A stretch of DNA of 51,496 nucleotides from Phenylobacterium sp. GTDB taxonomy: Bacteria; Pseudomonadota; Alphaproteobacteria; Caulobacterales; Caulobacteraceae. The notes under the pieces were generated by a model. It had not been told where the DNA came from. It saw only the letters and a list, made by a program, of their open reading frames with translations, and did not search any database. Below, in pieces: positions 9,115 to 43,442 of the stretch; position 1 is the first letter of the stretch, and the number at the start of each line of letters is the position of its first letter. The stretch is taken from assembly GCA_003136395.1 (NCBI GenBank), contig PLEH01000120.1, positions 1-51,496 of the forward strand. Reading direction: 5' to 3'. The translations under genes were made by a program, and so were the position numbers.

Positions 9115-9121
9115 CCGCTTC

Positions 9122-10020: not shown

Positions 10021-10036
10021 TTCGGGTATTGCCGAA
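10021..10036. promoter_or_regulatory. Inverted repeat just before arsR
   Basis: TTCGG (10021-10025), a 6-bp loop, then CCGAA (10032-10036), ending 2 bp before the arsR ATG. It could be a second ArsR operator or an mRNA hairpin limiting translation. No ribosome-binding site is obvious here. Confidence 0.4.
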
Positions 10037-10038
10037 TT

Positions 10039-10392: not shown

Positions 10393-10406
10393 CGAGGGAG
10401 GCGGAC

Positions 10407-10940: not shown

Positions 10941-11632
10941 CCGCCGACGCGAGCCTCGAGCCGCCGCTCGGGGATTTTGGCCTCGCCCGCCGCGTCGCCG
11001 CCGAGGCGCTGGGCGCGGCCCTGCTGCTCGCGGTGGTGGTGGGCTCCGGGATCATGGGCGAGCGGCTGTCCGGCGGTAATCAGGCCATGGCCCTGCTCGC
11101 CAACACGCTCGCCACCGGGGCGGGGCTGGTGGTGCTCATCACCGTCTTCGGGCCGGTCTCCGGCGCGCACTTCAACCCGGCCGTGACCCTGGTCTTTGCG
11201 ATCCGCCGCGAGCTCGGCGCGGGCGTGGCGGCCGCCTATGTGGCGGCGCAGATCGCGGGCGGGGTGCTGGGCGTGTGGGCGGCGCACGCCATGTTCGCCG
11301 AGCCGATCTGGCAGGTCTCGACCAGGCTCCGCGACGGCCCGGCCCAGGCTTTTTCGGAGTTCGTGGCGACCTTCGGCCTGATCCTGACCATCCTCGGGAC
11401 CCTGCGGTTCCGGCCTCAGGCGACGCCCGCGGCGGTCGGGCTCTATATCGCCGCGGCCTACTGGTTCACCGCCTCGACCTCCTTCGCCAACCCGGCGGTG
11501 ACGCTGGCCCGCAGCCTGTCGGACACCTTCGCCGGCATCGCGCCCAGCTCGGCGCCGGCCTTTATCGCGGCGCAACTGGCCGGAGCCATGGCGGCGGCCG
11601 GCCTCTGCAAATGGCTCCTGGCTAAGCCCTAG
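10937..11632 (+). CDS. aqpS: MIP family aquaporin (AqpS-like arsenite channel)
   Basis: Major intrinsic protein of 231 residues with six predicted helices and two NPA half-helices: GAHFNPAVT (N80) and SFANPAVT (N185). The residue after the second NPA, normally the selectivity-filter Arg, is V188. Loss of that Arg widens the pore and is typical of arsenic-operon AqpS proteins. In AqpS systems ArsC makes arsenite inside, which leaves by downhill flow through the channel, replacing an ArsB or Acr3 pump. No pump is encoded here, which fits. It overlaps arsC by 4 bp. Confidence 0.88.
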   Translation: MTADASLEPPLGDFGLARRVAAEALGAALLLAVVVGSGIMGERLSGGNQAMALLANTLATGAGLVVLITVFGPVSGAHFNPAVTLVFAIRRELGAGVAAAYVAAQIAGGVLGVWAAHAMFAEPIWQVSTRLRDGPAQAFSEFVATFGLILTILGTLRFRPQATPAAVGLYIAAAYWFTASTSFANPAVTLARSLSDTFAGIAPSSAPAFIAAQLAGAMAAAGLCKWLLAKP

Positions 11633-11761
11633 CGGCTTGAACCGTGCGGCCAAGCGTCTAGTCTGCGGGCATCCGGGCCGACGCGGGCGCCCGGACCAAG
11701 ACGGTGCGCCGTCCAAGACCCGCTCCTGTTGATCCGGCCGAGGGCCGGGAGGGAGCGCGAT

Positions 11762-12829: not shown

Positions 12830-12856
12830 CCTGACCCCCAAGGATGGAGACTTCCC

Positions 12857-13558
12857 ATGTCTGAACCGACCCTCGACCGCCGCATGCTGTTGGGCGGAGT
12901 TGCGCTCGCCGGCGCCGTCGCCGCCACGACGGCCGCGGCGCAATCCGCGCCGCCAGCCGCGGCGGGGGGTTTCAACCCGCAGCCCCTGCCCTTCGATCCC
13001 AAGGCGGTGGCCGGGCTCTCCGAGAAGCTGCTGGTGAGCCACCATGACAACAACTATGTGGGCGCCGTGAAACGGCTGGGCGTCATCCGCGCGGAGTTCG
13101 GCAAGCTCGACCCGACGTCCGCGCAGGGCTTCTTGGTCAATGGACTGAAGCGCGAGGAGCTGCTCGCCTGGAACTCCATGATCCTGCACGAAGTCTATTT
13201 CGCGGGCCTCGGCGCAGCCGCGGCGCCGAGCACGGGCCTGGCCCAGGCGGTGGAGCGGGACTTCGGCAGCCACGACCGTTGGGCCGCGGAGTTCTCCGGC
13301 ATGGGCAAGGCGCTGGGCGGCGGTTCGGGCTGGGTGATCCTGGCCTACAGCCCCCATGATCGTCGGCTGGTGAACACCTGGGCGGCCGACCACACCATGA
13401 ACCTGGCGGGCGGCGCGCCGCTGCTGGCGCTCGACATGTACGAGCACGCCTACCACATGGACTACGGCGCCAAGGCCGCCGCCTATGTGGACGCGGTGAT
13501 GAAGGTCCTCTCCTGGCGCCACGCCAACGAGGCGTTCCGGCGGGCGAGCGCGGCGTGA
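12857..13558 (+). CDS. Fe/Mn superoxide dismutase with Tat signal
   Basis: Protein of 233 residues. A twin-arginine signal (LDRRMLLGGVALAGAV) indicates folded export to the periplasm. SOD landmarks are the first metal His in VSHHDNNYVGAV, the second in NSMILHEVYFAGLG, and the C-terminal Asp/His ligands in LDMYEHAYHMDYG. Relative to typical enzymes with HHxKHHxxYV, three residues including a KHH stretch seem to be missing after the first ligand, marking a divergent subgroup. ATG with AGGATGGAGA upstream. A stem-loop follows the stop. Confidence 0.88.
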   Translation: MSEPTLDRRMLLGGVALAGAVAATTAAAQSAPPAAAGGFNPQPLPFDPKAVAGLSEKLLVSHHDNNYVGAVKRLGVIRAEFGKLDPTSAQGFLVNGLKREELLAWNSMILHEVYFAGLGAAAAPSTGLAQAVERDFGSHDRWAAEFSGMGKALGGGSGWVILAYSPHDRRLVNTWAADHTMNLAGGAPLLALDMYEHAYHMDYGAKAAAYVDAVMKVLSWRHANEAFRRASAA

Positions 13559-13566
13559 ATCCATTT

Positions 13567-13595
13567 GGCGGCGCCCTCGATTTCACGGCGCCGCC
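13567..13595 (+). terminator. Stem-loop after superoxide dismutase
   Basis: GGCGGCGCC (13567-13575) and GGCGCCGCC (13587-13595) form a perfect 9-bp stem with an 11-nt loop, 8 bp after the stop codon. There is no U-tract, so termination efficiency is uncertain. Confidence 0.6.
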
Positions 13596-13676
13596 ACAAC
13601 GGTCTGCTACCTGGGCGAGGTTCGCGCGCTCCTTGCGCGATGGCGCGCGGCGCTGGGCTGGATTGGGACTGCGATC

Positions 13677-15041
13677 ATGAAACGAAACCCGATGGCTTGC
13701 GCCGCATTGTCCGCCGCCCTTGCCTTGAGCCCGCTCGTCCCGGCGCGGGCGCAGGACGCCCAGCCGCAGCAGGCGAACCCGGACGGCAAGGCGGCGGTGG
13801 CTCCGGAGGCCTGGGCGCTCCACCTGCAGGCCACCGATATCCTGCAATACTATCCGGCCTTCCACAGCCCCTTCCAAGGCCCCAACAGCTTTCGGCCGCA
13901 GGCGACCAGCGGCAACACAGTGGACGCCACCCTCTACGCCGGCGTGAAGCCATGGGCGGGCGGCGAGGTTTGGGGAGACCTGGAGATGTACGAGGGCTAT
14001 GCGCCGAGCAACACGCTGGGCGCGGCCGGATACGTGAACGGCGACGGGGCGAAGGTGGGCCGCGCGCATCCTTATGCGCGGATCGCCCGGCTGTTCATCC
14101 GCCAGACCTTCGACCTGGGGGGCGAGGCCGACGACCAGGACGCCGATCTCAATCAGCTGGCCGCCCACCGGACCAGGGACCGGCTGGTGTTCACCGCCGG
14201 CAAGCTCAACGTCACCGACATCTTCGACACCAACAGGTACGCCCACGACCCACGCCATGACTTCCTCAACTGGAGCCTGATCACCGCCGGAAGCTTCGAC
14301 TACGCCGCCGACGCCTGGGGTTACACCTACGGGACCGCGGCGGAGTGGTATCGCGGCGACTGGACCTGGCGGGTGGGCGCCTTCGACCTATCCGTCGTGC
14401 CGAACAACGCGACCCTGACCTCGGACCTCAGCCAGTTCCAACTGGTCGGCGAGGCCGAGCGTCGGCTGACCCTTGGCGGACGGCCCGGAGCGATCCGGCT
14501 GGCGGGCTTCCTCACACGCGGGAGGATGGGTCGCTACGACGACGCGGCGGACCTGGCGCTGGCGACGGGCCGGCCCGCGGACACCGCGCTGGTGCGTCAC
14601 TACCGCAGCCGTCCGGGCGTCTACCTTAATCTGGAGCAGGAGGTGGCCGACGGGGTCGGGGTGTTCGCTCGCCTGGGAGGGTCCGACGGGACCTACGAGT
14701 CCTACGAATACACCGACATCGACCGCACGGCCCAGGCCGGCGTGTCGGTCACCGGCGCGCGCTGGGGACGCAAAGACGACACCGCCGCCGCCGCCTTCGT
14801 CGTCAATCAGCTCTCAGGGGCCGGCCATCGTTACCTCGATGCGGGCGGTCTCGGCATTCTGGTGGGCGATGGGCGGCTGCCGCATCCGGGACCGGAGGAC
14901 ATCGTCGAGGCCTACTACAGCCTGTCGCTGGCCAGGGACATGACGCTCAGCCTCGACGACCAACTCGTCGAACATCCGGCCTACAACCGCGACCGCGGGC
15001 CGGTGAACGTGGTGTCGCTGCGGCTTCACCTGCAGCGGTAA
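13677..15041 (+). CDS. OprB-like carbohydrate porin
   Basis: Outer-membrane beta-barrel of 454 residues with a signal peptide (MKRNPMACAALSAALALSPL, cleavage after ARA). The mature part alternates aromatic/polar strands, with typical OprB features: an early LQATDILQYYPAFHSPFQG, FIRQTFDLGGE, KLNVTDIFDTNRYAHDPR, and a closing strand VNVVSLRLHLQR. These porins admit sugars or other small solutes. The FQGPNSFRP start region suggests the carbohydrate-selective porin family. It is convergent with the Nramp-like gene across a palindromic repeat. Confidence 0.85.
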   Translation: MKRNPMACAALSAALALSPLVPARAQDAQPQQANPDGKAAVAPEAWALHLQATDILQYYPAFHSPFQGPNSFRPQATSGNTVDATLYAGVKPWAGGEVWGDLEMYEGYAPSNTLGAAGYVNGDGAKVGRAHPYARIARLFIRQTFDLGGEADDQDADLNQLAAHRTRDRLVFTAGKLNVTDIFDTNRYAHDPRHDFLNWSLITAGSFDYAADAWGYTYGTAAEWYRGDWTWRVGAFDLSVVPNNATLTSDLSQFQLVGEAERRLTLGGRPGAIRLAGFLTRGRMGRYDDAADLALATGRPADTALVRHYRSRPGVYLNLEQEVADGVGVFARLGGSDGTYESYEYTDIDRTAQAGVSVTGARWGRKDDTAAAAFVVNQLSGAGHRYLDAGGLGILVGDGRLPHPGPEDIVEAYYSLSLARDMTLSLDDQLVEHPAYNRDRGPVNVVSLRLHLQR

Positions 15042-15049
15042 GTTCAATA

Positions 15050-15176
15050 CCGCTCATCCCGGCGAAGGCCGGGACCCAGATGGAAAGACTCAGATGTGGG
15101 CTCCGCCGGCTCGGAGCACGACCAACCCGCCACCAAGCCATGGGATCTGGATCCCGGCCTTCGCCGGGACGAGCGG
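15050..15176. repeat. Palindromic intergenic repeat, type A copy 2
   Basis: Inverted arms 15050-15080 and 15146-15176 match the element at 5134-5259 almost base for base (GCTCATCCCGGCGAAGGCC and its complement), while the ~65-bp centre is unrelated. It again lies between convergent genes. Confidence 0.8.
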
Positions 15177-15182
15177 ATGGGC

Positions 15183-16496
15183 CTACTTCCCCCAGGTCGC
15201 GATGAGACCCACCGCGGCGGCGGCCATGACGGCGGTGGCGAGCCAGCCCACGGTCTTCAGGCCGCGGCCGAGCTGGAAGCCGCCCATGGCGGTCTTGTGG
15301 CTGGAGAGGTGCATCATCAGGACCATGACCGGCACGGCGACGACACCGTTGATCACCGCGCTCCAGAACAGCGCCTTGATCGGATCGATGGGGCTGTAGT
15401 TGAGCAGCACGCCCAGCGCCGTGGCGACGGCGATGGTCCAGTAAAAGGCCTTGGCGCGGCGCGGCTTGCGGGCCAGGCCCACGTGCCAGCCGAAGGTCTC
15501 GCCCAGCGCATAGGCCGACGAGCCGGCCAGGACCGGCAGAGCCAGGAGGCCCGTGCCGATGATGCCGATGGCGAAAACGGTGAAGGCGAAGCGCCCGGCG
15601 ATGGGACGCAGGGCCTCGGCGGCCTGGGATGAGGTCTGGATGTCGGTGATCCCGTGGGCGTGCAGCGTCGCCGCGGTGGTCAGGACGATGAACAGGGCCA
15701 CGGCATTGGAGAAACCCATGCCGACGTAGGTGTCCAGGCGGATGCGGCTGAGCTCGGCCGGCGCCTGCTCGGGCGCGCGTTCCAGCGGCTTGGCGTCGGT
15801 GCGTTCCTTGACCTCCTCGACCTCCTCCTCCGCCTGCCAGAAGAACAGGTAGGGGCTGATGGTCGTGCCCAGCAGCGCCACGACCACGGTCATGTAGGCC
15901 GGCGTGAAGCTGATCTGCGGGATCACCAGGCTCCTGGCCACCTCGCCCCAAGGCGTATGGACGATGAAGACCACGCCCACATAGGCGAACAGCGACAGCG
16001 TCAGCCACTTCAGGATCGAGACATAGCGGGAGTAGCGGGAGAAGACCTCCAGCAGCACGGTGCCCAGCCCGAAGATCGCGGCGTAGACGAGCTGTGGTCC
16101 GCCGATCAGCAGCTTCAGGGCCGCGCCCATGGCGCCCAGGTCCGCGCCCAGGTTGATGACATTGGCCACCACCAGCAGGGTCACGATCGAATAGACCACC
16201 GGCGCCGGGTAGTGCCGCTTCAGGTTGCCGGCGATGCCGCGGCCGGTGACCCGCCCGATCCGCGCGCTGATCTCCTGGATGGCGCACATAAGCGGCCAGG
16301 AGAACAGCAGGACCCAGGAGAGGCCGAAGCCGAACTGGGCGCCGGCCTGGGAATAGGTCGCGATGCCCGAGGGGTCGTCGTCGGAGGCGCCGGTGATCAG
16401 ACCCGGGCCCAGCACCTGCAGCAGCGGCGGCCGCTCCGGCTGCTTGACGCCCCGATGTGGCCTGGGGCGGATCTTCGGCGGCGCAGGGTCACTCAT
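15183..16496 (-). CDS. Nramp-like divalent metal transporter
   Basis: Inner-membrane protein of 437 residues with about 11 helices. Helix 1 has the Nramp signature GASDDDPSGIATYSQ, keeping the metal-binding Asp but with DPSG in place of the canonical DPGN. The helix-6 motif MPH of Mn/Fe transporters is replaced by TISPYLFFW, with no methionine, so selectivity may differ from MntH, for example towards a harder ion. A soluble loop QAEEEVEEVKERTDAK follows. It is last in a run of six minus-strand genes starting with the cytochrome lipoprotein and is 78 bp from copC. Confidence 0.85.
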   Translation of the reverse strand: MSDPAPPKIRPRPHRGVKQPERPPLLQVLGPGLITGASDDDPSGIATYSQAGAQFGFGLSWVLLFSWPLMCAIQEISARIGRVTGRGIAGNLKRHYPAPVVYSIVTLLVVANVINLGADLGAMGAALKLLIGGPQLVYAAIFGLGTVLLEVFSRYSRYVSILKWLTLSLFAYVGVVFIVHTPWGEVARSLVIPQISFTPAYMTVVVALLGTTISPYLFFWQAEEEVEEVKERTDAKPLERAPEQAPAELSRIRLDTYVGMGFSNAVALFIVLTTAATLHAHGITDIQTSSQAAEALRPIAGRFAFTVFAIGIIGTGLLALPVLAGSSAYALGETFGWHVGLARKPRRAKAFYWTIAVATALGVLLNYSPIDPIKALFWSAVINGVVAVPVMVLMMHLSSHKTAMGGFQLGRGLKTVGWLATAVMAAAAVGLIATWGK

Positions 16497-32091: not shown

Positions 32092-32769
32092 TCAGCCCAT
32101 CCGCTGCAGCACCGCGTCGCTGATGCGTTCGCAGCGGGCGCCGAGGAATGGATAGGCGCCCACCATGACGTCAGCGAGCTGGGCGTCGAGGGCCTCGCGC
32201 AGACGCCGCCGGGCGCGATGCAGGCGGGTCTTCACGGTCTCGACCTTCAGATTCAGATGGTCGGCGGTCTCCTCGACGGTGAGGCCCTCGACCTCGCGCA
32301 GGATGAAGACGAGCCGGAAGGGCTCCGGCAGGGCGTCGACGGCGTGCTCCAGAATGTGGCGGATCTGGGCGCGGGCGGCGTCGGCCTCGGGGTCGTCGCT
32401 CCTGATCATGCCGGGGAAATTCAGCACCTGAGCACTCTCCTGGGCGGTCTCCAGTTCATCGAGATCGACCGTGACCTTGCGGCGACGCAGGCGCCCGTGA
32501 GCCTCGTTGAGCACGATGCGGGTCAGCCAGGTGGCGATCCCCGCCTCGCCGCGAAAGTTCGCGATGGCGGCGAAGGCGCGCATATAGGCCTCCTGCAGCA
32601 CGTCCTCGGCCTCGGACTCGTCGCGGACCACGGCGCGGGCGACGCGGAACAGGCGCTGGTTGCAGCGGGTCATGATCGCGCGGAACGCGGCCCGGTCGCC
32701 GGCGCGCGCGAAGCCGACCAGCTCCGCTTCCGGCATTCCGAGATAGTCGAGGGCGTGAGTGGCGCGCAT
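32092..32769 (-). CDS. ECF RNA polymerase sigma factor
   Basis: 225-residue sigma-70 family ECF factor. Region 2 has FRVARAVVRDESEAEDVLQEAYMRAF and GEAGIATWLTRIVLNEA; region 4 has LPEPFRLVFILREVEGLTVEETADHLNLKVETVKTRLHRARRRL. The ATG at 32769 follows AGGAG by 8 bp; the frame stays open to 32847 but the ribosome-binding site decides. No anti-sigma gene is adjacent. It is divergent from the DUF4142 and cupredoxin genes, with a palindrome containing GGAACC on both strands between them, the typical -35 element of ECF-dependent promoters. Confidence 0.92.
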   Translation of the reverse strand: MRATHALDYLGMPEAELVGFARAGDRAAFRAIMTRCNQRLFRVARAVVRDESEAEDVLQEAYMRAFAAIANFRGEAGIATWLTRIVLNEAHGRLRRRKVTVDLDELETAQESAQVLNFPGMIRSDDPEADAARAQIRHILEHAVDALPEPFRLVFILREVEGLTVEETADHLNLKVETVKTRLHRARRRLREALDAQLADVMVGAYPFLGARCERISDAVLQRMG

Positions 32770-32815
32770 GGGCTGGCTCCTAGAATACACCCATTGGACG
32801 CCGCAGCCGCGGCGA

Positions 32816-32829
32816 GGTTCCCGGGAACC
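32816..32829. promoter_or_regulatory. Palindrome GGTTCCCGGGAACC (back-to-back ECF -35 elements?)
   Basis: A perfect 14-bp palindrome between divergent genes. Each strand carries GGAACC. On the minus strand GGAACC is followed after about 15 bp by CGTC, the -10 pattern of many ECF promoters, about 30 bp before the sigma-factor start. The plus strand lacks a clear CGTC. Confidence 0.5.
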
Positions 32830-32897
32830 TTCGCGGCCCTGACCCATCTGATGAGCAAGCCGCCGAGCCGGTGGCCGTTCACTCGGGAGACCACGAC

Positions 32898-33410
32898 ATG
32901 TTCAAAGCCATCGGTATCGCCGCGGCGTTCAGCCTCGCCGGCAGCGCCGCCTGGGCCCAGGCCCCCAACGATGCCCAGATCGCCCACATCGCCTATACCG
33001 CCGGCGTCGTCGACGTGGCGGCCGGCAAGCAGGCGCTGGAGAAGTCTCACAACAAGGCCGTCCGCGGCTTCGCCGAGGAGATGGTCCGCGACCACACTGC
33101 GGTGAACGACCAGGCGCTCGCCCTGGTCAAGAAGCTGGGCGTCACCCCGCAGGACAATCCCACCAGCCAGGGGCTCGCCAAGGGCGGCGCCGACAAGCTG
33201 AGGGCGCTGGGCGAGCTGAAGGGCGCGGCCTTCGACAAGGCCTATGTCGCCAACGAGGTCGCGTACCACAAGACGGTCAACGGGGCGCTTTCCGCCACGC
33301 TGATCCCCAACGCCAAGAACGGCGAACTGAAGAGCCTGCTGCAGACCGGGCTGAAGCTCTTCCAGGAACACCAGGCGCACGCCGAGCACCTGGCGATGAC
33401 CGTCAAGTAA
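32898..33410 (+). CDS. DUF4142 family exported protein
   Basis: 170-residue periplasmic protein with a signal peptide (MFKAIGIAAAFSLAGSAAWA) and one four-helix ferritin-like DUF4142 domain (AHIAYTAGVVDVAAGKQALE, VRGFAEEMVRDHTAVNDQAL, YVANEVAYHKTVNGAL, FQEHQAHAEHLAM). The ATG at 32898 starts the signal peptide. Function of the family is not established; members cluster with oxidative and envelope stress genes. It is followed 11 bp later by the cupredoxin and likely controlled by the divergent ECF factor. Confidence 0.88.
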   Translation: MFKAIGIAAAFSLAGSAAWAQAPNDAQIAHIAYTAGVVDVAAGKQALEKSHNKAVRGFAEEMVRDHTAVNDQALALVKKLGVTPQDNPTSQGLAKGGADKLRALGELKGAAFDKAYVANEVAYHKTVNGALSATLIPNAKNGELKSLLQTGLKLFQEHQAHAEHLAMTVK

Positions 33411-33421
33411 GGCGGACCGCG

Positions 33422-33766
33422 GTGACATCCCCCCACCTGTGGATCGCCGTGCTGGCCGGGGCGGCGCTCGCCGCCGCCCCGGTTTGCGGCGCCGCTGCCG
33501 CCAGGCCCCGGACGGCCGCCGTCTACACGGTGACGATCGCGGCGATGAAATTCGGCCCCACGCCGGCCGCGATCCATGTCGGCGACACCGTCGAGTGGGT
33601 GAACAACGACATCTTCGTCCATTCGGCCACGGCCAGGGACAAGAGCTTCGACGTCGAGCTGAAGCCCAAGGCGCGCCTGCGGACGACCTTCCATCGGGCG
33701 GGGACCTATCCCTTCGCCTGCCGCTACCACCCCGGGATGACCGGGACGCTGGTGGTCGCGAAATAG
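33422..33766 (+). CDS. Cupredoxin (plastocyanin-like) periplasmic copper protein
   Basis: 114-residue protein with a signal peptide (GTG start) and a type-1 copper site: H67 (DIFVHSATA), C100, H103 and M106 (FACRYHPGM). It resembles the pseudoazurin/amicyanin-like cupredoxins and should transfer single electrons in the periplasm or store copper. It is 11 bp after DUF4142, the second gene of that unit. The redox partner is unknown. Confidence 0.9.
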   Translation: MTSPHLWIAVLAGAALAAAPVCGAAAARPRTAAVYTVTIAAMKFGPTPAAIHVGDTVEWVNNDIFVHSATARDKSFDVELKPKARLRTTFHRAGTYPFACRYHPGMTGTLVVAK

Positions 33767-35284: not shown

Positions 35285-35364
35285 CCCCGCGTCCTCCCGC
35301 CGTGCCGTTGTCCGGCATCACGCCACAGGGGCCGCCAGGGTTCAAGCAGGCATGCCTACAGACT

Positions 35365-35485
35365 GCGGGATGCTCCCCCCACCGAGCCGCTTGGCGGCTC
35401 GGCCCCCCTCGCTTCGCGATCCACCCCCAGCGGGGGTGGATGGGAGCCGTCAGCGAAGGTGACTGAGGGGGTTGAAGCCCACTGG
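35365..35485. repeat. Palindromic element with two perfect hairpins
   Basis: Contains GAGCCGC-TTG-GCGGCTC (35384-35400) and a perfect 10-bp stem ATCCACCCCC-AGC-GGGGGTGGAT (35419-35441), then TGACTGAGGGGGTTGA. It resembles mobile palindromic repeats of Caulobacterales. Its right border falls within a thioredoxin-like frame, replacing that gene's 3' half. Confidence 0.6.
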
Positions 35486-35703
35486 TCCGGCCGGTCCATG
35501 GTCGCCGTCAGGATCTGGCAGTCGCCGCACCAGTCGCCGCCGAGGTCGATCAAGAGGAGCTTGCCCGAGGCCCTGGCGCGCGCCTTGGCCCTGGCCACCT
35601 GGGCGTCGGCGGCGGCCGCCTCGTCATAGGGATAAGGCAAGGGGACCTTGAGCTGGGCGAAACTGTCGATGCCGACCCTGGGCGCCGGGGCCGGCGCGGC
35701 CAT
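35470..35703 (-). pseudogene. Truncated thioredoxin-like gene
   Basis: From the ATG at 35703 the frame encodes about 78 residues of a thioredoxin-fold protein: a leader (VGIDSFAQLKVPLPYPYDEA), an Ala-rich helix, LLLIDLGGDWCGDCQILTATM with the redox CGDC, then DRPDQWAS. After that the frame runs into the palindromic element to a stop at 35356 and the second half of the fold (cis-Pro and last strands) is missing. The frame also stays open upstream to 35832. It is probably a remnant; a short functional form is less likely. It lies at the 3' end of the hydrogenase-4-like operon. Confidence 0.65.
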
Positions 35704-35806
35704 GGCGGGCGCACCCAGATCGAGTGGGCCCCGCAGGGCCTGATCTGCGAACTGTGGCTCGGGCGAGCGGACTGACTCCCCAGCGATACGGAATGTGCGG
35801 TCGGCG

Positions 35807-36343
35807 CTAGCGGGCAGGCTTGGCCGACGCATCAGCCAGCAGGGCCAGCAGGCCCTTCAGCAGCGCGGTGGGGTCGGGCGGGCATCCCTTGATGTGGAGG
35901 TCCACCGGCAAGACATCGGCCACCCCGCCGGCGCAGGCGTAGCCGCCGCAGAACAGGCCGTCGCCCGCGGCGCAGTCGCCGGCCGCAACCACCCATTTGG
36001 GGGCTGGCGTCGCGGCATAGGTCCGCTCCAGCGCCTCGCGCATATTGAGCGTCACCGGACCGGTGACCAGCAGCACGTCGGCATGGCGCGGAGAGGCGAC
36101 GAAGCGCAGGCCGAAACGCTCCAGGTCGTAGAAGGGATTGCTGAGCGCGTGGATCTCAAGCTCGCAGCCGTTGCACGACCCGGCGTCCACCTGGCGGATG
36201 GAGAGGCTGCGGCCGAGCCGCCGGCGCGCGCCGGCATCGAGGCGGGCGGCGAGTTCGGCCAGTTCGGCGTCCCCGGCCGCCGGCGGCAGCTCGGTCAGCG
36301 GGGTCCGCAGGATCCCTTCAGCCAGGAGCTTCGGCATCGACAT
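35807..36343 (-). CDS. Small [4Fe-4S] subunit, HyfI/NuoB-like (Ehr-type complex)
   Basis: 178-residue homologue of HyfI/NuoB, the subunit carrying the last iron-sulfur cluster of complex I and group 4 hydrogenases. Four cysteines of the [4Fe-4S] site are present: C57 and C60 (DAGSCNGCELE), C124 (AAGDCAAGDG) and C154 (IKGCPPDP). It keeps GGYACAGGVADVLPVDLHIKGCPPDP. It overlaps the large subunit by 1 bp (TGATG). It is predicted to sit on the cytoplasmic face as the electron-accepting module; the electron donor is unknown because no ferredoxin-like HyfA/H subunit is encoded nearby. Confidence 0.88.
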   Translation of the reverse strand: MSMPKLLAEGILRTPLTELPPAAGDAELAELAARLDAGARRRLGRSLSIRQVDAGSCNGCELEIHALSNPFYDLERFGLRFVASPRHADVLLVTGPVTLNMREALERTYAATPAPKWVVAAGDCAAGDGLFCGGYACAGGVADVLPVDLHIKGCPPDPTALLKGLLALLADASAKPAR

Positions 36344-37848
36344 CAGAGGTCAGACCCCGCATAGGCGCAGTTGAAGGATTTGTTGGCGAGGGGGAAGTCG
36401 GCGACGATATCGCCCTCCACCGCCGCCTCAACCAGCGGCCACTGAAACCACGACGGGTCCCGCAGCCAGGCCCGCGCCACGCGTCCGCGATCGAGCCTCA
36501 GCCAGGCCAGGACGTCGCCGCGGAAGCCCTCGACCAGCGCCAGGCCTTCGCCTGAGCCGGCAGGCAGGTCCCGGCGCACGGGTCCGCCCGGCAGGCGTTC
36601 GAGAATCTGCTCGACCAGGCCCAGGCTCTGGCTCACCTCGTCGATGCGGATCCAGACGCGCGCGTTGACGTCGCCCTCCGTCCGCACCGGCGTCTGGAAC
36701 TCGAGCCTGTCGTAGGGCGGGTAGCGGAGCGCGCGGCGGGTGTCGAAGTCGCGACCCGAGGCGCGGCCAACGAATCCGCCCGCAGCGAACCTGCGGACCA
36801 GCTCCGTCGACACCACGCCGGTTCCGACGGTGCGATCCTGCAACGAGGCGGTGTCGTCATAGAGGGCCGTCAGGACAGGCAGGCGTTCGCGGACCGTCCC
36901 GACCAGCGCCCGCAGGACCGACGCCCCGTCCGGAGCAAGATCCGATGTCACGCCGCCGGGGACGATCCGGTCCATCATCAGGCGATGGCCAAACGTCGCC
37001 GAGTTGGCGCGCAGGGCCGCCTCGCGCAGAACGGCGCAATGAGCGTGCATCATCAAAAAAGCGGCGTCGTTGCATATCGCGCCGATGTCGCCCAGGTGGT
37101 TGGCCAAGCGCTCCAGCTCCGCCATCAGCGCCCGCAGCCAGACGGCCCGGGGCGGCGCCTCCACCTTCAGGGCGGCCTCCGCCGCGCGGGCGAAGGCGTA
37201 GCCGTAGGCCACGGTGCTGTCGCCCGAGGCGCGGGCCGCGAGCCTGGCCGCGGTCGCCAGATCGGCGCCGGCCATGCGCGCCAGCAGGCCGCGGTGAGCG
37301 TAGCCCAGCCTGGCCTCAAGCCTGACCACGGTCTCGCCGTTGGCGGTGAAGCGGAAATGGCCCGGCTCGATGGTCCCGGCGTGCACGGGCCCCACCGCGA
37401 TCTGGTGCAGGCTCTCTCCCTCGGCGGGCAGGAAGACGTAGGGCTGCGCCGCGCCGGCCGCCGGAACAGGCGCGCCCAGGGGATGGCGCAGCGTCCAGCG
37501 GCCGTGATCGAGCCAGGCCCGCGGGTCGGGCGCGCCCCTGGCCTTGAGGCCGGTGAGGTCGCAGAGCGCGCGCTCCAGGCGGCCGGCCGGCGCATGGTGG
37601 GCGCTCACAGAGGGATAGTGTCCGTCCGGGCAATCCAGACTGAGGACCGCGACCCGTCCCGCGGCCTCGTCCAGCAGCGCCATGTGGACCTGTCCAGGCT
37701 CTCCCCAGAGGCCGAGCAGCGCGAGCTCGCCGGCCGTGAGCCGGCGGGTCGCGGCGCGCCAGACGGCCGCGTCGATGACCGTCCGCGGCCATGGGCGATG
37801 GGCCCGGACGGACCGGCCGCGGGTGGTGAGGTCTGCGAGCCGGGTCAC
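36343..37848 (-). CDS. Large subunit, NuoCD/HyfG-like but without Ni-Fe ligands
   Basis: 501 residues from GTG at 37848 (10 bp after hyfF, preceded by GAGG). An N-terminal NuoC-like part (about 1-150: LERALCDLTGLKARGAPDP) is fused to a NuoD/hydrogenase large-subunit part. The latter has GYAHRGLLARMAGADLATAA, LANHLGDIGAICNDAAFLM, and a C-terminus FPLANKSFNCAYAGSDL. The two CxxC motifs that bind Ni-Fe in hydrogenases are absent: the CGIC position reads ASGDSTVAYG and no DPCxxC exists at the end. No CxxC occurs anywhere. So it is not a hydrogenase; it fits Ehr or complex I-like large subunits. Confidence 0.87.
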   Translation of the reverse strand: MTRLADLTTRGRSVRAHRPWPRTVIDAAVWRAATRRLTAGELALLGLWGEPGQVHMALLDEAAGRVAVLSLDCPDGHYPSVSAHHAPAGRLERALCDLTGLKARGAPDPRAWLDHGRWTLRHPLGAPVPAAGAAQPYVFLPAEGESLHQIAVGPVHAGTIEPGHFRFTANGETVVRLEARLGYAHRGLLARMAGADLATAARLAARASGDSTVAYGYAFARAAEAALKVEAPPRAVWLRALMAELERLANHLGDIGAICNDAAFLMMHAHCAVLREAALRANSATFGHRLMMDRIVPGGVTSDLAPDGASVLRALVGTVRERLPVLTALYDDTASLQDRTVGTGVVSTELVRRFAAGGFVGRASGRDFDTRRALRYPPYDRLEFQTPVRTEGDVNARVWIRIDEVSQSLGLVEQILERLPGGPVRRDLPAGSGEGLALVEGFRGDVLAWLRLDRGRVARAWLRDPSWFQWPLVEAAVEGDIVADFPLANKSFNCAYAGSDL

Positions 37849-37858
37849 GGACGTCGCC

Positions 37859-39307
37859 TCATCCGAGCATCCTCGCCACATGCTGGAACCAGCTGGTGAT
37901 CAGGGGCGGGAAATAGAGGCCCGCGGCCAGCACCAGCCCCAGATGGCCGAACATGGGCAGGTAGGAGGCGTGGGCCTTCGCCGTGCCGGGCGTCGGCTCA
38001 CCGAAGGCCAGGCCCTGCAGCCGCAGCAGGAGGGCCCCGAAGGCGACCAGCAGGCCGAACACCAGCGGTATCGCCAGCAGCGGCTGGCGGGCGAAGGTCG
38101 AGCTGATCACCAGGAACTCGCTGGTGAAGATGCCGAAGGGCGGCAGGCCGGCGATCGCCATCACGCCGACGACCAGCGTCCAGCCGAGGATCGGGTGGGT
38201 GACCGTCAGGCCGCGGATCCCGGCGATCTGCTGGGTGCCCTTCACCTGGGCGATGTGGCCGACGCTGAAGAAGATCGCCGACTTGGTCAGGCTGTGCATG
38301 GTCATGTGCAGCAAGCCTGCGAAATTGGCGAGCGGGCCGCCCATCCCGAAGGCGAAAACGATGACGCCCATGTGCTCGATCGAAGAGTAGGCGAACATCC
38401 GTTTTATGTCGCGGCGGCGGTAGAGCATGAACGCCGCGAAGATCAGCGAGACCAGCCCCATGGTGACCATCAGGGGTCCCGGCGCGAGCGCGGCGTGATT
38501 GGCCGCCAGCAGCATCTTGAAGCGCAGTATCGCGTAGAGGGCGACATTGAGCAGCAGACCCGAGAGCACGGCCGAGATCGGCGTCGGGCCCTCGGCGTGG
38601 GCGTCCGGCAGCCAGGCGTGCAGGGGGGCCAGGCCCACCTTGGTGCCGTAGCCGAGCAGCAGGAATACGAAGGCCACGTTGAGCAGGGCGGGATCGAAGC
38701 CGGCGACCTTCTCGATGAGCACCGTCCAGACCATGCCATTGAGGCCTTCGCCGACCACCGGCCGGGCCGCCACATAGACCAGGATGGTCCCGAACAGGGC
38801 GAGCGCGATGCCGACACTGCCCAGGATGAAATATTTCCAGGCCGCCTCCAGCGCCTCGTGGGTGCGGTAGATCCCCACCATCACCACGGTGGTCAGGGTG
38901 GCCAGCTCGATCGCCACCCACATCAGGCCCAGGTTGTTGGACACCAGGGCGAGGTTCATGCCGAACATCAGGAGCTGGTACATGGCGTGATAGAATCGCA
39001 GCCGCACCTGGGTGAGCCGACCGATCTCGATCTCGTGGGCGATGTAGCCGCCACTGAACAGGCTGGTGGTGAAACCCACCAGGGTGTTGAGCACGATGAA
39101 GACGACGCTGAGGTCGTCGACCTGCAGATAGAGCCCCACGGCCGGGCGTCGAATGAACAGCGAGGAGGCCACGACCAGGGTGGCAAGCGCCGCGGCGGAA
39201 TTGATCCGCGCGCTGAGCCGGTAGCTGGGCAGCAGCGCCAGCACCGCCGCGGTGGCCAGCGGAATGATCAGGATCAGGTGGATGGCGTTGATCGGAACGA
39301 AGCTCAT
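37859..39307 (-). CDS. hyfF: Hydrogenase-4 subunit F-like, Mrp/NuoN-type antiporter subunit
   Basis: 482 residues, about 14 transmembrane helices, NuoL/M/N family. It keeps the proton-pathway residues: E134 in MWVAIELATL, K223 in GYGTKVGLAPLHAWLPDAH, and the broken-helix region GPTPISAVLSGLLLNVAL, plus MFAYSSIEHMG. It is expected to move protons or sodium when the complex is active. Its ATG overlaps the stop of hyfE by 4 bp (ATGA), and the large-subunit gene follows 10 bp after its own stop. Confidence 0.92.
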   Translation of the reverse strand: MSFVPINAIHLILIIPLATAAVLALLPSYRLSARINSAAALATLVVASSLFIRRPAVGLYLQVDDLSVVFIVLNTLVGFTTSLFSGGYIAHEIEIGRLTQVRLRFYHAMYQLLMFGMNLALVSNNLGLMWVAIELATLTTVVMVGIYRTHEALEAAWKYFILGSVGIALALFGTILVYVAARPVVGEGLNGMVWTVLIEKVAGFDPALLNVAFVFLLLGYGTKVGLAPLHAWLPDAHAEGPTPISAVLSGLLLNVALYAILRFKMLLAANHAALAPGPLMVTMGLVSLIFAAFMLYRRRDIKRMFAYSSIEHMGVIVFAFGMGGPLANFAGLLHMTMHSLTKSAIFFSVGHIAQVKGTQQIAGIRGLTVTHPILGWTLVVGVMAIAGLPPFGIFTSEFLVISSTFARQPLLAIPLVFGLLVAFGALLLRLQGLAFGEPTPGTAKAHASYLPMFGHLGLVLAAGLYFPPLITSWFQHVARMLG

Positions 39308-39966
39308 TTCTGGGCTTCCCGGAACCGGTCGAGGGCGCTGACGTCCACAGTGTCGAACCGCTCGCGGATGCGGAACAGGAACACGCCGACCACGATGAAG
39401 GCGATCAGTACGGAGAAGGCCACGCTGATCTCGACCACGAGCGGCATGCCCTTGGCGCCGGTGGCGGCCAGCACAAGGCCGTTCTCCAGCGACATGAAGC
39501 CGATGATCAGGCTGACCGCGTTGCGGCGGGTCACCATCATCAGCAGACCCAGCAGGAGGACCGACAACGCAAAGGCCATGTCCTCCCGGGCGAGCTGATC
39601 GGCGGCCGCCGTCACCCGCAGCATCACCACCATGGCCAGGGCCACCAGGCCGATCCCGGCCAGCATGGTTGGCCCCACGCCGACCACGGTCTCGATCTCG
39701 CGATGCACGCCCAGCCGCTTGATGATCCGGTGCAGGGCGCCGGGGATGACCAGGGCCTTGAAGACCAGGGCGATCACCGCGGTGACGTAGAGGTGCGGCG
39801 CGGCCTGGATGTAGGCCTGCCAGGCCACCGACATCGCCAGCACCAGGGCCTGAAGGGCGAAGACGTTGATCAGCGCCGTCAGACGATCCTGATAGAGCAT
39901 CATGAAGCTGATCAGCACGAGGCTGCCGGCCAGCAGGTGCGCGAAGTCGAAATCAAGTCCGCTCAA
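39304..39966 (-). CDS. hyfE: Hydrogenase-4 component E-like membrane protein
   Basis: 220-residue membrane protein with about six helices, similar in length to E. coli HyfE (216). It combines a NuoK-like C-terminal half (RRNAVSLIIGFMSLENGLVLAA) with NuoJ-like preceding helices. The conserved Glu in SLENGL corresponds to the NuoK proton-path residue. I chose the TTG at 39966 because GGAGG lies just upstream and the start overlaps the hyfC stop (TTGA); a longer frame to 40182 is antisense-like and improbable. Confidence 0.85.
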   Translation of the reverse strand: MSGLDFDFAHLLAGSLVLISFMMLYQDRLTALINVFALQALVLAMSVAWQAYIQAAPHLYVTAVIALVFKALVIPGALHRIIKRLGVHREIETVVGVGPTMLAGIGLVALAMVVMLRVTAAADQLAREDMAFALSVLLLGLLMMVTRRNAVSLIIGFMSLENGLVLAATGAKGMPLVVEISVAFSVLIAFIVVGVFLFRIRERFDTVDVSALDRFREAQK

Positions 39967-40925
39967 CGCAGGCCTCCGCGCGAAACGAACAGCAGGAGCG
40001 TCCCGAGGAACCCCAGCATGAGGGCGGCGCCGAGGAATTCCGGCGCCCGGAACACCCGCATCTTGGCGATGGCGGTTTCGAACAGCGCAAGCAGTCCGCC
40101 GGCCAGGGCGAGCTTGCCGAGGTAGGAGGCCAGGCCGATGGCGAGCGCCAGCCCGCCGGAGCCCGCCGGCGCCAGGCCCCAAGGAAGAAAGAGGCAGGCG
40201 ATCAGCGACACGTAGAGCAGCAGTTTCAGCGAGGCGGCCAGCTCGATCACCGCCAGGTGCCGGCCCGAATACTCCAGGACCATGGCCTCGTGCACCATGG
40301 TCAGCTCCAGGTGGGTGGCGGGGTTGTCGATGGGGATGCGCGAATTCTCGGCGATCGCCACCATGATCAACGCCACCAGCGCCATGCCGAGCGTGACCCG
40401 CAGGCCGACGTGGGGGGACAGCATGTAGGTCGCCACGCTGGACAGCTGGGTCGAGCCGGCCAGCAGAGCCAGCGAGAAGACAATCATGATCATCGCCGGT
40501 TCGGCGAGGGTGGCGATCATCATCTCGCGGCTGGAGCCGATGCCCCCGAAGCTGGTGCCAACGTCCATGGCGGCAAGCGCAAGAAAGAACCGGGCGCTGC
40601 CCAGCAGGGCGATGATGGCGATGAGGTCGGCCGACCAGCTGAACAAGAGGCCCGTCGCGAAGGTGGGCACCAGGGCGGCGGCCACCCAGGTCGCGGCGAA
40701 GATGAGGTAGGGCGCGACGCGGAACAGCCAGGAGGCGTTGTCGGCCAGCACCACCTCCTTCTTCATCAGCCGCATCAGGTCGCGATAGGGCTGCAGCAGC
40801 GGCGGTCCCTGGCGGCGGACCAGCCGCGCCTTCAGCTTGCGGATGAACCCGGTCAGGAGCGGCGCCAGCGCCAGCACCAGGGTCATCTGCGTCGCCTGAA
40901 TGGCCAGATCTCTGATCAGAGCCAT
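39963..40925 (-). CDS. hyfC: Complex I subunit 1 (NuoH/HyfC-like) membrane protein
   Basis: 320 residues with about eight helices. NuoH/HyfC hallmarks are the cytoplasmic loop RRQGPPLLQPYRDLMRLM and the charged segment AENSRIPIDNPATHLELTMVHEAMVLEYSG (positions about 185-214; acidic residues that couple redox to proton movement). The start ATG at 40925 lies within the last codons of hyfB (10-bp overlap). It anchors the soluble small/large subunits to the membrane arm. Confidence 0.9.
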   Translation of the reverse strand: MALIRDLAIQATQMTLVLALAPLLTGFIRKLKARLVRRQGPPLLQPYRDLMRLMKKEVVLADNASWLFRVAPYLIFAATWVAAALVPTFATGLLFSWSADLIAIIALLGSARFFLALAAMDVGTSFGGIGSSREMMIATLAEPAMIMIVFSLALLAGSTQLSSVATYMLSPHVGLRVTLGMALVALIMVAIAENSRIPIDNPATHLELTMVHEAMVLEYSGRHLAVIELAASLKLLLYVSLIACLFLPWGLAPAGSGGLALAIGLASYLGKLALAGGLLALFETAIAKMRVFRAPEFLGAALMLGFLGTLLLFVSRGGLR

Positions 40926-42937
40926 ATGGCGAGCACCAGCAGGAGCCCGACCAGGGCGAGGAACACCAGGCTGAGGTAGCGGCGGATCGTCAGGAACTGC
41001 AGGTGATTGAGACGGCCGGCGACATAGTCGATCCCGCCGGCGATCGGCGCGTAGAGCGTCTCCCAGATGCGGTCGTGGACCACCACCCTGATGCTGGCCG
41101 CACGGGTGTCGCCGGGCGCCGGCATGTCGACCTCCTCGCGGACGCCGAAGACGAAGGGGCCGAACACCCGGCGGATCGGCTGGGCGAAGCTGCCGGCGGT
41201 GTATTGCGTGGCCGGACTTGGATCGGGGAATCCGCAGTCCCAGGCGGGGGCGCGGCGAAAGGCGTGCGATCCGAACCGGTGGATCACGAAGGCCGCGAGC
41301 GACGCCGAGGCGGCGACGAAGCCCAGCACGAGCAGGCCGTTGTAGGAGCTGCGCGCCTCGGCGATCGGGACGATGGACAGCCACGGCTGCGCCGCCTGCG
41401 GCGTCATGCGGCCGCCGACCAGGCTCTGGACCGCCGGCACGATGGCGTCGATCACGAACCCGGGGAGGACGCCCGCGGCGAGGCACAGGCCGCAGCAGGC
41501 GAACATCGCCGCCCGGGACCAACGGTCGGTCTCGCTGGCCTCAGCCGCCGCGACGGAGCGGGGGCGGCCAAGGAAGGTGATCCCGAAAGCCCTCACGAAA
41601 GCCGCGGCGGTGAGCGCGGCGGCCAGCGCCAGCAAGGCGCCCACGGCGGGGATCATGATCTTCAGCGCCGAGGCGTCCAGCTTCGGACTGAGCAGGATCG
41701 CCTGGAAGACCAGCCATTCGGAGACGAATCCGTTCAGCGGCGGAAGGGCGGAGATCGCCACGCAGCCGATCAGGAAGGCCAGGGCGGTCTGCGGCATCCG
41801 GCCGATCAGGCCGCCAAAACGCTCCATGTCGCGTTCGCCCATCGCGCCCTGAACGGCGCCGGCGCCGAAGAACAGCAGGCTCTTGAACAGCGAGTGGTTG
41901 ATCACGTGGAACAGCGCCGCCGTCACCGCGAGCGCGGCGGCCAAGGCCATGTGCTGGGCCTTGAACGCCATGCCGAGACCTAGGGCGATGAAGATGATCC
42001 CGACGTTTTCGACCGTGGAGTAGGCCAGGAAGCGCTTCAGGTCGTTTTGCAGCAGGGCGTAGAGGATCCCCATGGTGGCGGTGGCGCCGCCCATGGCGAG
42101 GATGACCAGGCTCCACCAGGGCGCGGGCGCGCCCGCCAGGTCGAAGACAATGCGGATGAAGGCGTAGATCGCGACCTTGGTCATAACGCCGCTCATCAGC
42201 GCCGAGACGTGACTCGGCGCGGCCGGATGGGCCAGGGGAAGCCAGACGTGGAGCGGAACCAGCCCCGCCTTGGAGCCGGCGCCGAGGATCGCCAGCGCCA
42301 GGACGAAACCGGCGGCGATCGGCGACGGCGGATGAGACCGGATCGCGTCGAACGCGTAGCCGCCCTCCTGCCCCGCCAGCAGCCCGAACGCCAGCAGCAG
42401 GCAGATCGCCCCGAAGCTCGCCATCAGCAGATAGACGTAGCCCGCGCGGGCGTTGTCGGCGTCGCGATGGCGCGCCATGACCAGGGCCCAGGAGCTCAGG
42501 GACATGACCTCCCACACGACAAGGAAGCTGAACGCGTCGTCGGCCAGAACGACCAGGTTCATGCCCGCAAGGAAGACCGGATAGAACGGCAGGACGCGTT
42601 GGGGTTCCGGCTCGTGGCGGCCATATCCCAAGGCGTAGAGGCTGGCGACGGCGGCCCCGAGGTTGACCACCACCAGGAACACCGCCGCCAGCGCGTCCAG
42701 GCGGAACCGCGCCCCGACCCAGGGCAGGCCAAGCGGCAGCACCACGCTGTCCGGGGCGGGGGCGGCCATGAGGAGGTGCCGCAGCGCCAGGCCGCCGGCG
42801 GCCAGGGCGACCACCAGGCAGGCCGAATAGACCAGCGGCGTCGCCCACGCCCTCCGGGCGAACGGAACGGCGAACGCCGACAGCCCGAGCAGAGCGGCGC
42901 AGCACTCGAGCAGCAACTCCACGGACGTGGGGATCAT
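40916..42937 (-). CDS. hyfB: Hydrogenase-4 subunit B-like antiporter subunit
   Basis: 673 residues, about 16 helices, NuoL family, similar in length to HyfB. Proton-path residues remain: E143 (VVWEVMSLSSW), K223 (GAGSKAGLVPLHVWLP), and FLAYSTVENVG. The C-terminal extension (about 560-640) contains APAWDCGFPDPSPATQYTAG, typical of HyfB/HycC. It is first structural gene of the operon, 38 bp after the XRE regulator, and may share its promoter. HyfD, present in true hydrogenase-4, is missing here. Confidence 0.92.
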   Translation of the reverse strand: MIPTSVELLLECCAALLGLSAFAVPFARRAWATPLVYSACLVVALAAGGLALRHLLMAAPAPDSVVLPLGLPWVGARFRLDALAAVFLVVVNLGAAVASLYALGYGRHEPEPQRVLPFYPVFLAGMNLVVLADDAFSFLVVWEVMSLSSWALVMARHRDADNARAGYVYLLMASFGAICLLLAFGLLAGQEGGYAFDAIRSHPPSPIAAGFVLALAILGAGSKAGLVPLHVWLPLAHPAAPSHVSALMSGVMTKVAIYAFIRIVFDLAGAPAPWWSLVILAMGGATATMGILYALLQNDLKRFLAYSTVENVGIIFIALGLGMAFKAQHMALAAALAVTAALFHVINHSLFKSLLFFGAGAVQGAMGERDMERFGGLIGRMPQTALAFLIGCVAISALPPLNGFVSEWLVFQAILLSPKLDASALKIMIPAVGALLALAAALTAAAFVRAFGITFLGRPRSVAAAEASETDRWSRAAMFACCGLCLAAGVLPGFVIDAIVPAVQSLVGGRMTPQAAQPWLSIVPIAEARSSYNGLLVLGFVAASASLAAFVIHRFGSHAFRRAPAWDCGFPDPSPATQYTAGSFAQPIRRVFGPFVFGVREEVDMPAPGDTRAASIRVVVHDRIWETLYAPIAGGIDYVAGRLNHLQFLTIRRYLSLVFLALVGLLLVLAIWL

Positions 42938-42974: not shown

Positions 42975-43220
42975 TCACTGTCGCAACCGCAGGCCGCGGC
43001 CGCGTCCCTGACTTGGGGCGTCTTCGCCCAGGATCTCCAGCCCGGCCGCGTTCAGGGCGCCAATCAGCTTCATCAGTGAATCGACGTTGCCGCGAATGAC
43101 GCCTTCGCTCGCCTCCATCCGCTGGATGGTCGGCACGGACAGGTTCGACATGTCGGCCAGGGTCTTCTGGTCGATGCCAAGCAGCGCTCGCGCGGCCCTG
43201 AGCTGTGCGGCAGTCAGCAT
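42975..43220 (-). CDS. XRE family helix-turn-helix regulator
   Basis: An 81-residue protein. Residues 5-60 form the lambda-repressor-type HTH (AARALLGIDQKTLADMSNLSVPTIQRMEA), followed by VDSLMKLIGALNAAGLEIL and a basic Gly/Arg-rich tail. Common in Alphaproteobacteria as a single-domain regulator. It is co-directional with and 38 bp upstream of hyfB, so it is the best candidate regulator of the complex. An AT-rich TATATATA tract (43253-43260) upstream probably belongs to its promoter. Confidence 0.88.
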   Translation of the reverse strand: MLTAAQLRAARALLGIDQKTLADMSNLSVPTIQRMEASEGVIRGNVDSLMKLIGALNAAGLEILGEDAPSQGRGRGLRLRQ

Positions 43221-43442
43221 GTTCCAAACATCATTAGGCAGGCCTGATACGTTATATATAGAGTCTAAACCTTGGATGCGGCACGTTCAACACGACTTTC
43301 GCGGCAAAGGCTCTGAGGTCGCCGGCCCGGCGATCTCACCCGGCCGCACCCCGGTTGCAAGCGCCGCAACTTGGCGCGCACACTGAGCATCTTCGCCTGC
43401 CAAGCGACTGCAATTGATGCGCGGCTTCTGGGGGGCTAGGGT

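What the first reader, a model, noticed from the sequence alone, without database searches (positions are those of the whole stretch)
35807..42937. Ehr-type (hydrogenase-4-like) complex without ferredoxin subunits
Six overlapping genes encode HyfB-, HyfC-, HyfE-, HyfF-, HyfG- and HyfI-like subunits in the order B-C-E-F-G-I. HyfD and the ferredoxin-like HyfA/HyfH are missing, and no maturation genes (hyp) are present. The membrane arm keeps proton-path residues (E143/K223 in HyfB, E134/K223 in HyfF, the acidic loop of HyfC), so it should pump or respond to ion gradients. Related energy-converting hydrogenase-related complexes are known in Geobacter, and a similar gene order exists at Rv0082-Rv0087 in Mycobacterium tuberculosis, but their redox reaction is unresolved. 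The electron donor and acceptor are open questions.
Basis: partly seen in the sequence, partly recalled or inferred. Interest (0 to 1): 0.75.

Follow-up and report, generated by a model that had tools for sequence, protein, structure and literature searches.

The report
Nickel-free hydrogenase-like ion-pump complex
A bacterium carries six genes for a membrane complex that looks like a hydrogen-making enzyme but has lost its metal site; it is a known but unexplained kind of complex, and a sister group of it lies behind fluoride-sensing RNA switches, which gives a first way to test what such complexes do.

Summary
Six overlapping minus-strand genes (42937-35807) encode HyfB-C-E-F-G-I homologues, without HyfD, ferredoxin subunits or hyp genes. 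It is an Ehr complex: the four NiFe cysteine positions of HyfG read S-S-A-G here (SSSG in 93 of 114 rows), the complex-I quinone His/Tyr pair is absent too, while HyfI's four [4Fe-4S] cysteines (110 of 110) and the proton-path Glu/Lys of the membrane arm are conserved. The genome (92% complete) shows no HypD and no NiFe hydrogenase.

Two things were missed. First, a small XRE regulator gene (43220-42975) heads the cluster; a homologue directly precedes Ehr in 48 of 122 loci, with a palindromic operator GATGT-N5-ACATC (22 of 45 loci at one mismatch or less; 0.13 expected). No other neighbour is widely conserved, so no donor is encoded nearby. Second, a sister clade (order C-E-F-G-I-B, ferredoxin domain fused to HyfI) has a fluoride riboswitch upstream in 13 of 13 testable loci and no NiFe cysteines; the 'formate hydrogen lyase' reported in the fluoride regulon is probably this.

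Most likely function: redox-linked ion translocation for ion/pH homeostasis, not H2 chemistry. Donor and acceptor stay unknown. New member of a known kind.

The parts
40916..42937 (-). hyfB (antiporter-like subunit, 673 aa)
   Evidence: E143 96/96 and K223 95/96 conserved
39963..40925 (-). hyfC (NuoH-like subunit, 320 aa)
   Evidence: acidic loop E193...E218 102/102
39304..39966 (-). hyfE (220 aa, TTG start)
   Evidence: hydrogenase 4 membrane subunit model, 86 bits, below its cut-off of 136
37859..39307 (-). hyfF (antiporter-like subunit, 482 aa)
   Evidence: E134 112/112 and K223 111/112
36343..37881 (-). hyfG (large subunit, NuoC+NuoD-like; NiFe cysteine positions are S219, S222, A506, G509)
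35807..36343 (-). hyfI (small subunit; one [4Fe-4S] site C57, C60, C124, C154; no ferredoxin domain)
42975..43220 (-). XRE-family helix-turn-helix regulator gene, 37 nt ahead of hyfB
   Evidence: homologue directly upstream and co-directional in 48 of 122 Ehr loci
43218..43232 (.). putative operator GATGT-N5-ACATC (one mismatch), overlapping the start codon of the XRE gene

Best explanation
It is an Ehr complex: a NiFe-free relative of formate hydrogenlyase/hydrogenase-4. HyfG and HyfI sit on a membrane arm of HyfC, HyfE and two antiporter-like subunits. Inferred mechanism: a soluble low-potential electron donor encoded elsewhere docks on HyfI, passes electrons through its single [4Fe-4S] cluster to a changed pocket in HyfG, and this redox step drives H+ or Na+ movement through HyfC, HyfF and HyfB. 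The pocket has Ser/Gly (here also Ala) at the old cysteine places and new invariant or near-invariant residues (D221, D272, H299, D304, K501, N504); its substrate is unknown. Physiologically it most likely serves ion or pH homeostasis under a locally sensed stress, with the operon probably repressed by its own XRE regulator. Shown from sequence: gene set, cysteine loss, cluster ligands, pump residues, regulator gene and operator motif. Inferred: redox activity, direction, ion, donor, acceptor, repression, physiological role.
For: No row of 114 keeps more than one of the four NiFe cysteines; four cluster cysteines 110/110 and proton-path residues kept, which a dead complex would not keep; Ehr-specific invariants near the old active-site motifs; no HypD and no NiFe hydrogenase match in the genome; Ehr separate from hydrogenases in the tree; regulator with a conserved operator; sister clade behind fluoride riboswitches, with crcB, CLC, pyrophosphatase or enolase genes nearby in several loci, a setting of ion and pH stress (PMC11139923, passages read).
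Against: No donor or acceptor gene is regularly linked to the operon in 144 loci. The quinone ligands of complex I (positions recalled) are absent (His to I171, Tyr to G220). No window-type Ehr in the genomes tested lies near a fluoride riboswitch, so the homeostasis role is carried over from a sister clade 30-33% identical in HyfG. No structure could be predicted.
Confidence: 0.45

Rival explanations
1. A redox-silent, regulated ion transporter: the HyfG/HyfI head has become a structural or sensing cap (the D221/K501 residues plug the old metal site), and the membrane arm works as a multi-subunit cation/proton antiporter in the manner of Mrp.
For: No donor or acceptor gene regularly linked; both known catalytic sites of the superfamily (NiFe cysteines, quinone His/Tyr) are gone; membrane arm conserved; sister clade sits in a fluoride and pH stress setting.
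Against: The four cluster cysteines are invariant (110 of 110), and the sister clade adds a fused ferredoxin domain with eight or nine more cysteines in 12 of 13 HyfI proteins, which is most simply read as electron flow.
Confidence: 0.25
2. A ferredoxin- or flavodoxin-dependent quinone reductase (a minimal complex-I-like enzyme) with a non-canonical quinone pocket made of the Ehr-specific residues.
For: HyfG hits Complex1_49kDa and not NiFeSe_Hases in Pfam; pocket residues are invariant.
Against: The quinone His and Tyr of NuoD are replaced; no electron-input module is encoded in the operon.
Confidence: 0.2
3. An active [NiFe] hydrogenase / formate hydrogenlyase.
For: Best PDB match of HyfG is the large subunit of the E. 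coli FHL complex; two loci have hyp genes directly upstream.
Against: All four ligand positions lost here and at most one cysteine left in any of 114 rows; no HypD in this genome and none in 23 of 40 Ehr-bearing genomes; no ferredoxin or formate dehydrogenase gene in the operon.
Confidence: 0.01
4. A decaying operon without function.
For: Patchy occurrence: 6 of 60 genomes of the family.
Against: All frames open, residues invariant across 96-114 rows, operator and regulator conserved.
Confidence: 0.02

Closest known systems
[quoted passage not shown] PMC6349859, PMC10284858, PMC7304191, passages read)
   Same: Group-4-hydrogenase-like head without the NiFe cysteines, on Mrp/complex-I-like membrane subunits; function unknown.
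   Different: The published cases read here are in Margulisbacteria and kin, comammox Nitrospira and CPR bacteria; this is the six-gene form found widely in Proteobacteria, here with an XRE regulator and operator. PMC6349859 proposes a formate dehydrogenase partner; no such linked partner emerged here.
Fluoride-riboswitch Ehr (L203, L204, L238, L240, L241, L286-L292; L242 a divergent type), probably what others list as formate hydrogen lyase
   Same: Same subunits, no NiFe cysteines; HyfI 59-60% identical over about 130 aa; groups with the window type in the HyfG tree.
   Different: Order C-E-F-G-I-B, ferredoxin domain fused to HyfI, fluoride riboswitch upstream, L1/L2 motifs of the type RVSGxxS and NEASFGLTIAG; the window has none of these.
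E. coli hydrogenase-4 / formate hydrogenlyase (Hyf, Hyc)
   Same: Homologous B, C, E, F, G, I subunits.
   Different: Hyf has HyfA, HyfD, HyfH, HyfJ and four NiFe cysteines; the window has none of them.
Respiratory complex I
   Same: NuoC/D-, NuoB-, NuoH-, NuoK- and NuoL/N-like subunits.
   Different: No NuoE/F/G/I in the operon, quinone His and Tyr absent.

Membership tests
Ehr complex | Large subunit homologous to group 4 hydrogenases but without the NiFe cysteines | tested here: met
Ehr complex | Small subunit keeps the proximal [4Fe-4S] cysteines | tested here: met
   110 of 110 at C57, C60, C124, C154
Ehr complex | NuoH-like and antiporter-like membrane subunits in the operon | tested here: met
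Ehr complex | Phylogenetic separation from active hydrogenases | tested here: met
   SH-aLRT 99; window-type Ehr 100; Ehr plus fluoride-linked rows 93; the hydrogenase rows themselves 73; quick trees without bootstrap
Ehr complex | Grouping with the published Geobacter, Nitrospira or M. tuberculosis members | not testable with these tools
   Those sequences were not fetched; the comparison is recalled
[NiFe] hydrogenase group 4 / FHL | Two CxxC motifs | tested here: not met
   S219, S222, A506, G509
[NiFe] hydrogenase group 4 / FHL | hyp maturation genes in the genome | tested here: not met
   No HypD in G000 (genome 92% complete); the other hyp genes were not searched genome-wide
[NiFe] hydrogenase group 4 / FHL | Ferredoxin-like subunits HyfA/HyfH or HycB/HycF | tested here: not met
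   None in the operon; no ORF with a C..C..C...C motif within 3 kb on the Ehr strand in 144 loci
Complex I | Quinone-binding His and Tyr in the 49-kDa subunit (positions recalled) | tested here: not met
   I171 and G220
Fluoride-riboswitch Ehr | RF01734 upstream of hyfC | tested here: not met
   Only chrB-b reached the gathering score in the window; no RF01734 match in G000
Fluoride-riboswitch Ehr | Ferredoxin domain fused to HyfI and order C-E-F-G-I-B | tested here: not met

The most novel reading that the evidence does not exclude
Ehr complexes are redox-coupled ion-homeostasis machines, each branch wired to its own stress sensor: an XRE repressor with a GATGT-N5-ACATC operator in much of the window's branch, a fluoride riboswitch in its sister branch. 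The 'formate hydrogen lyase' listed behind the crcB motif since 2010 is then not a formate or hydrogen enzyme but a nickel-free Ehr that helps cells keep proton balance when HF carries protons in.
Probability: 0.4. Interest if true: 0.7.

Novelty: new member of a known kind. Interest (0 to 1): 0.5.

Why it matters
Ehr complexes are widespread and unexplained. A branch that lies behind a riboswitch for a known, cheap inducer (fluoride) can be induced, deleted and purified at will, so the question 'what does an Ehr do' becomes testable. It also suggests that a gene set reported as formate hydrogen lyase in the fluoride regulon is mis-named, at least in the proteobacteria sampled here. For the window's own branch, the operator gives a way to find the inducing signal.

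Tried and rejected
Hydrogenase and complex-I membership: rejected on residues (see tests). A linked electron donor: neighbour clustering over 144 loci (ORFs of at least 90 aa within 6 kb, top 22 clusters read) gave no gene other than the XRE regulator (35 loci there) in more than 11 loci; a SpeE-like methyltransferase (11), a short-chain dehydrogenase (11), an ABC transporter subunit (10), a YoaK-type membrane protein (6) and, in 4 beta loci, a SulP-like transporter are lineage-bound or scattered. DUF4365 is adjacent downstream in 5 of 84 loci. A wider regulon of the XRE operator: a strict pattern (TGATGT-N5-ACATSA) in 15 Ehr-bearing genomes gave 12 distinct places in 10 genomes, none in the window's own genome, against none for the reversed control pattern. 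One is the Ehr site of G032, one lies about 3.5 kb behind the Ehr operon of G008; the other ten are away from Ehr and were not followed up, so a wider regulon is not excluded. Fluoride link of the window type itself: 12 of 71 genomes (67 window-type, 4 of the divergent group) have a fluoride riboswitch, none near the Ehr operon (same contig only in G097 and G196, about 0.5 and 1.6 Mb away, with stricter filters that lose weak matches); in the second batch the only riboswitches near an Ehr-type gene belonged to the fluoride-linked types (to which I gave 40 of the 84 genomes). Viral contigs: no relative. In one search HypD is commoner in Ehr-bearing genomes (17 of 40) than in the 26 Ehr-free ones (2), but the latter are all from the window's class, so this is not a matched test. 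The match in G010 (29% identity) was not followed up; not every match was inspected by motif. The operator in the window alone is not significant by count (3 matches, 0.62 expected, 1 of 100 shuffles as high); its position is what counts.

Full report
WHAT IS THERE. The window (about 70% G+C; contig C112 of a 4.9 Mb draft genome of 336 contigs) carries on the minus strand six overlapping genes, hyfB-C-E-F-G-I, at 42937-35807. HyfD, HyfA, HyfH and HyfJ are absent from the operon. The genome shows no HypD and no NiFe hydrogenase large subunit; its only other PF00346 match is on contig C54 and is complex I NuoD by its residues. By its relatives in the tree the organism is an alphaproteobacterium (inference).

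THE ACTIVE SITE IS GONE, THE CLUSTER AND THE PUMP ARE NOT. I aligned HyfG from the window with rows covering at least 80% of it from the loci (114 rows in all; shorter rows, L093, L099-L101 and the plasmid copies left out). At the four NiFe cysteine positions of HycE/HyfG the rows read SSSG in 93, other combinations in the rest; six rows keep a single cysteine and none keeps two (112 rows reach the last two positions). The window reads S219, S222, A506, G509 (Ser at 506 in 104 of 112). In place of the metal ligands there are residues invariant or nearly so in this branch and different in E. coli: D221 (114/114), D272 (113/114), H299 (113/114), D304 (112/114), E485, K501 and N504 (112/112), N500 (111/112). 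The quinone-binding His and Tyr of complex I NuoD (positions recalled) are I171 and G220 here. HyfI keeps C57, C60, C124 and C154 in 110 of 110 rows; HyfB E143 96/96, K223 95/96; HyfF E134 112/112, K223 111/112; five acidic residues of the HyfC loop 102/102. So the complex is neither a hydrogenase nor a canonical quinone reductase, but is under strong selection.

PHYLOGENY. In a 76-row tree rooted on NuoD, the Ehr rows separate from HycE/HyfG with SH-aLRT 99 on a branch of 2.4 changes per column; three very divergent relatives (L101, L192, L193) fall among the Ehr rows on a branch of length 6, which I do not trust. The window groups with four members of its own family (support 96), in which 6 of 60 genomes have the operon (one of the six, G053, is a partial match). 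In a second tree of 59 rows with six fluoride-linked sequences added, the 40 window-type rows form one clade (100); the fluoride-linked rows group together (87) and beside it, the two being set off from the hydrogenases with 93; the eight hydrogenase rows hold together only at 73 (quick trees, no bootstrap; the tool flagged long branches among the fluoride-linked rows).

A REGULATOR AND ITS OPERATOR. Directly upstream of hyfB, same strand, lies a small XRE helix-turn-helix gene (43220-42975). Over 144 Ehr loci, 122 have at least 600 nt upstream; 48 of these have this XRE gene, 4 an XRE-cupin gene, 3 a ribbon-helix-helix gene in the same orientation and 67 none of the three. In 45 of the 48 the XRE start could be placed by motif; upstream of it 22 of 45 hold GATGT-N5-ACATC with at most one mismatch (0.13 expected from mononucleotide shuffles) and 34 of 45 with at most two (2.6 expected); spacing 5 is by far the best, spacing 3 next (6 loci); 156-nt control stretches elsewhere in the same loci give 37 of 5687. 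In the window the site is 43218-43232 and overlaps the start codon. This predicts autorepression; it was not tested.

NO LINKED PARTNER. Clustering of genes within 6 kb of Ehr in 144 loci found no gene other than the XRE regulator in more than 11 loci. HypC, HypD and HypE homologues are near Ehr in two loci (Pleomorphomonas L156, Oryzibacter L144), where hypE ends 0.3-0.5 kb ahead of hyfB; their HyfG still lacks the cysteines. No ORF with a ferredoxin-type C..C..C...C motif lies within 3 kb on the Ehr strand in the 144 loci. On rhizobial plasmids such as pRL11 of R. johnstonii 3841 the cassette stands alone: XRE, hyfB-C-E-F-G-I, DUF4365. HypD is missing in 23 of the 40 Ehr-bearing genomes tested.

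THE FLUORIDE-LINKED SISTER CLADE. A plasmid hit at 30% identity proved to be a Cys-less Ehr inside a fluoride-response island: six fluoride riboswitches besides the one ahead of the operon, crcB, a CLC-type channel and pyrophosphatase in 21 kb. With its Caballeronia homologue as query I found close relatives (50-65% identity) in 4 of 300 genomes of one order, 6 of 369 genomes of its class and 5 plasmid records (68% identity or more, the query's own record included; 3 of 5 read), plus a divergent type in G454 (33%). Of these, G589 is cut at the 5' end and two plasmid records were not read. In all 13 remaining loci (L203, L204, L238, L240, L241, L242, L286-L292) a fluoride riboswitch on the coding strand lies upstream of hyfC: within about 0.6 kb in 11, and ahead of a leader that includes crcB and a DUF190 gene in L240 and L241. 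All 14 HyfG sequences (with L239) lack cysteine at all four positions; HyfI has an N-terminal ferredoxin domain (Pfam Fer4 in L204; 8-9 extra cysteines in 12 of the 13 HyfI proteins aligned, 4 in L242, whose fourth cluster cysteine also did not align; L290 is cut). HypD is absent from 7 of 11 of these genomes. By contrast no window-type Ehr in the genomes tested lies near a fluoride riboswitch.

WHY THIS BEARS ON FUNCTION. [quoted passage not shown] I infer that these are the same genes; their gene lists were not checked. In the loci sampled here the complex lacks the residues to make H2, and no formate dehydrogenase is annotated beside it in the two annotated plasmid regions. The same review says that fluoride lowers the cytoplasmic pH and that Na+/H+ antiporters are the next most common riboswitch-linked class after exporters, which fits an ion-moving complex. 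I saw no paper linking Ehr to fluoride in the listings of the searches; the library holds open-licence papers only.

VERDICT. The added value is the regulator with its operator, the finding that both known catalytic sites are absent while the cluster ligands are invariant, and the fluoride-controlled sister clade that makes the function testable. Donor, acceptor and ion remain unknown.

Noticed in passing
window 35356-35832, - strand: ORF overlapping the end of hyfI with a partial Thioredoxin_7 match (37 residues); looks like a gene fragment or remnant.
   Followed up: no
window 11673-11723, + strand: chrB-b RNA motif above the gathering score, usually ahead of chromate-resistance genes (recalled).
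   Followed up: no
window 32092-33766: Sigma-factor-like gene on the - strand next to a DUF4142-like and a cupredoxin-like gene on the + strand (names by eye from the ORF list, no family scan).
   Followed up: no
L243 (G562:C46), 430-15323: Two window-type Ehr operons in tandem, B-C-E-F-G-I twice, whose HyfG fall in different sub-branches.
   Followed up: partly
L101, L192, L193 (one family of genomes of the window's class, 2.0-2.5 Mb): Very divergent Ehr-like operon in the same order with L1 motif RINAxDS and the HyfI CNGC motif kept (seen in L101).
   Followed up: partly
L144 and L156: hypC-D-E (and a HypF-like ORF) directly upstream of a Cys-less Ehr operon, same strand.
   Followed up: partly
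L182, L183 (rhizobial plasmids): DUF4365 gene directly downstream of hyfI, adjacent and co-directional in 5 of 84 loci.
   Followed up: no
L107, L068, L070, L202 and others: SpeE-like methyltransferase / spermine-synthase-domain gene a few kb from Ehr in 11 loci and, as a separate cluster, 4 other loci (Pfam of two of them).
   Followed up: no
L241 10409-10472 and 9092-10414: Second fluoride riboswitch at the head of an enolase gene, next to the fluoride-linked Ehr operon.
   Followed up: no
G169:C165, G256:C173, G341:C1 (L276, L278, L274): The same strict operator-like 17-mer occurs away from Ehr in three genomes of one genus; possible wider regulon or a coding-sequence coincidence.
   Followed up: no
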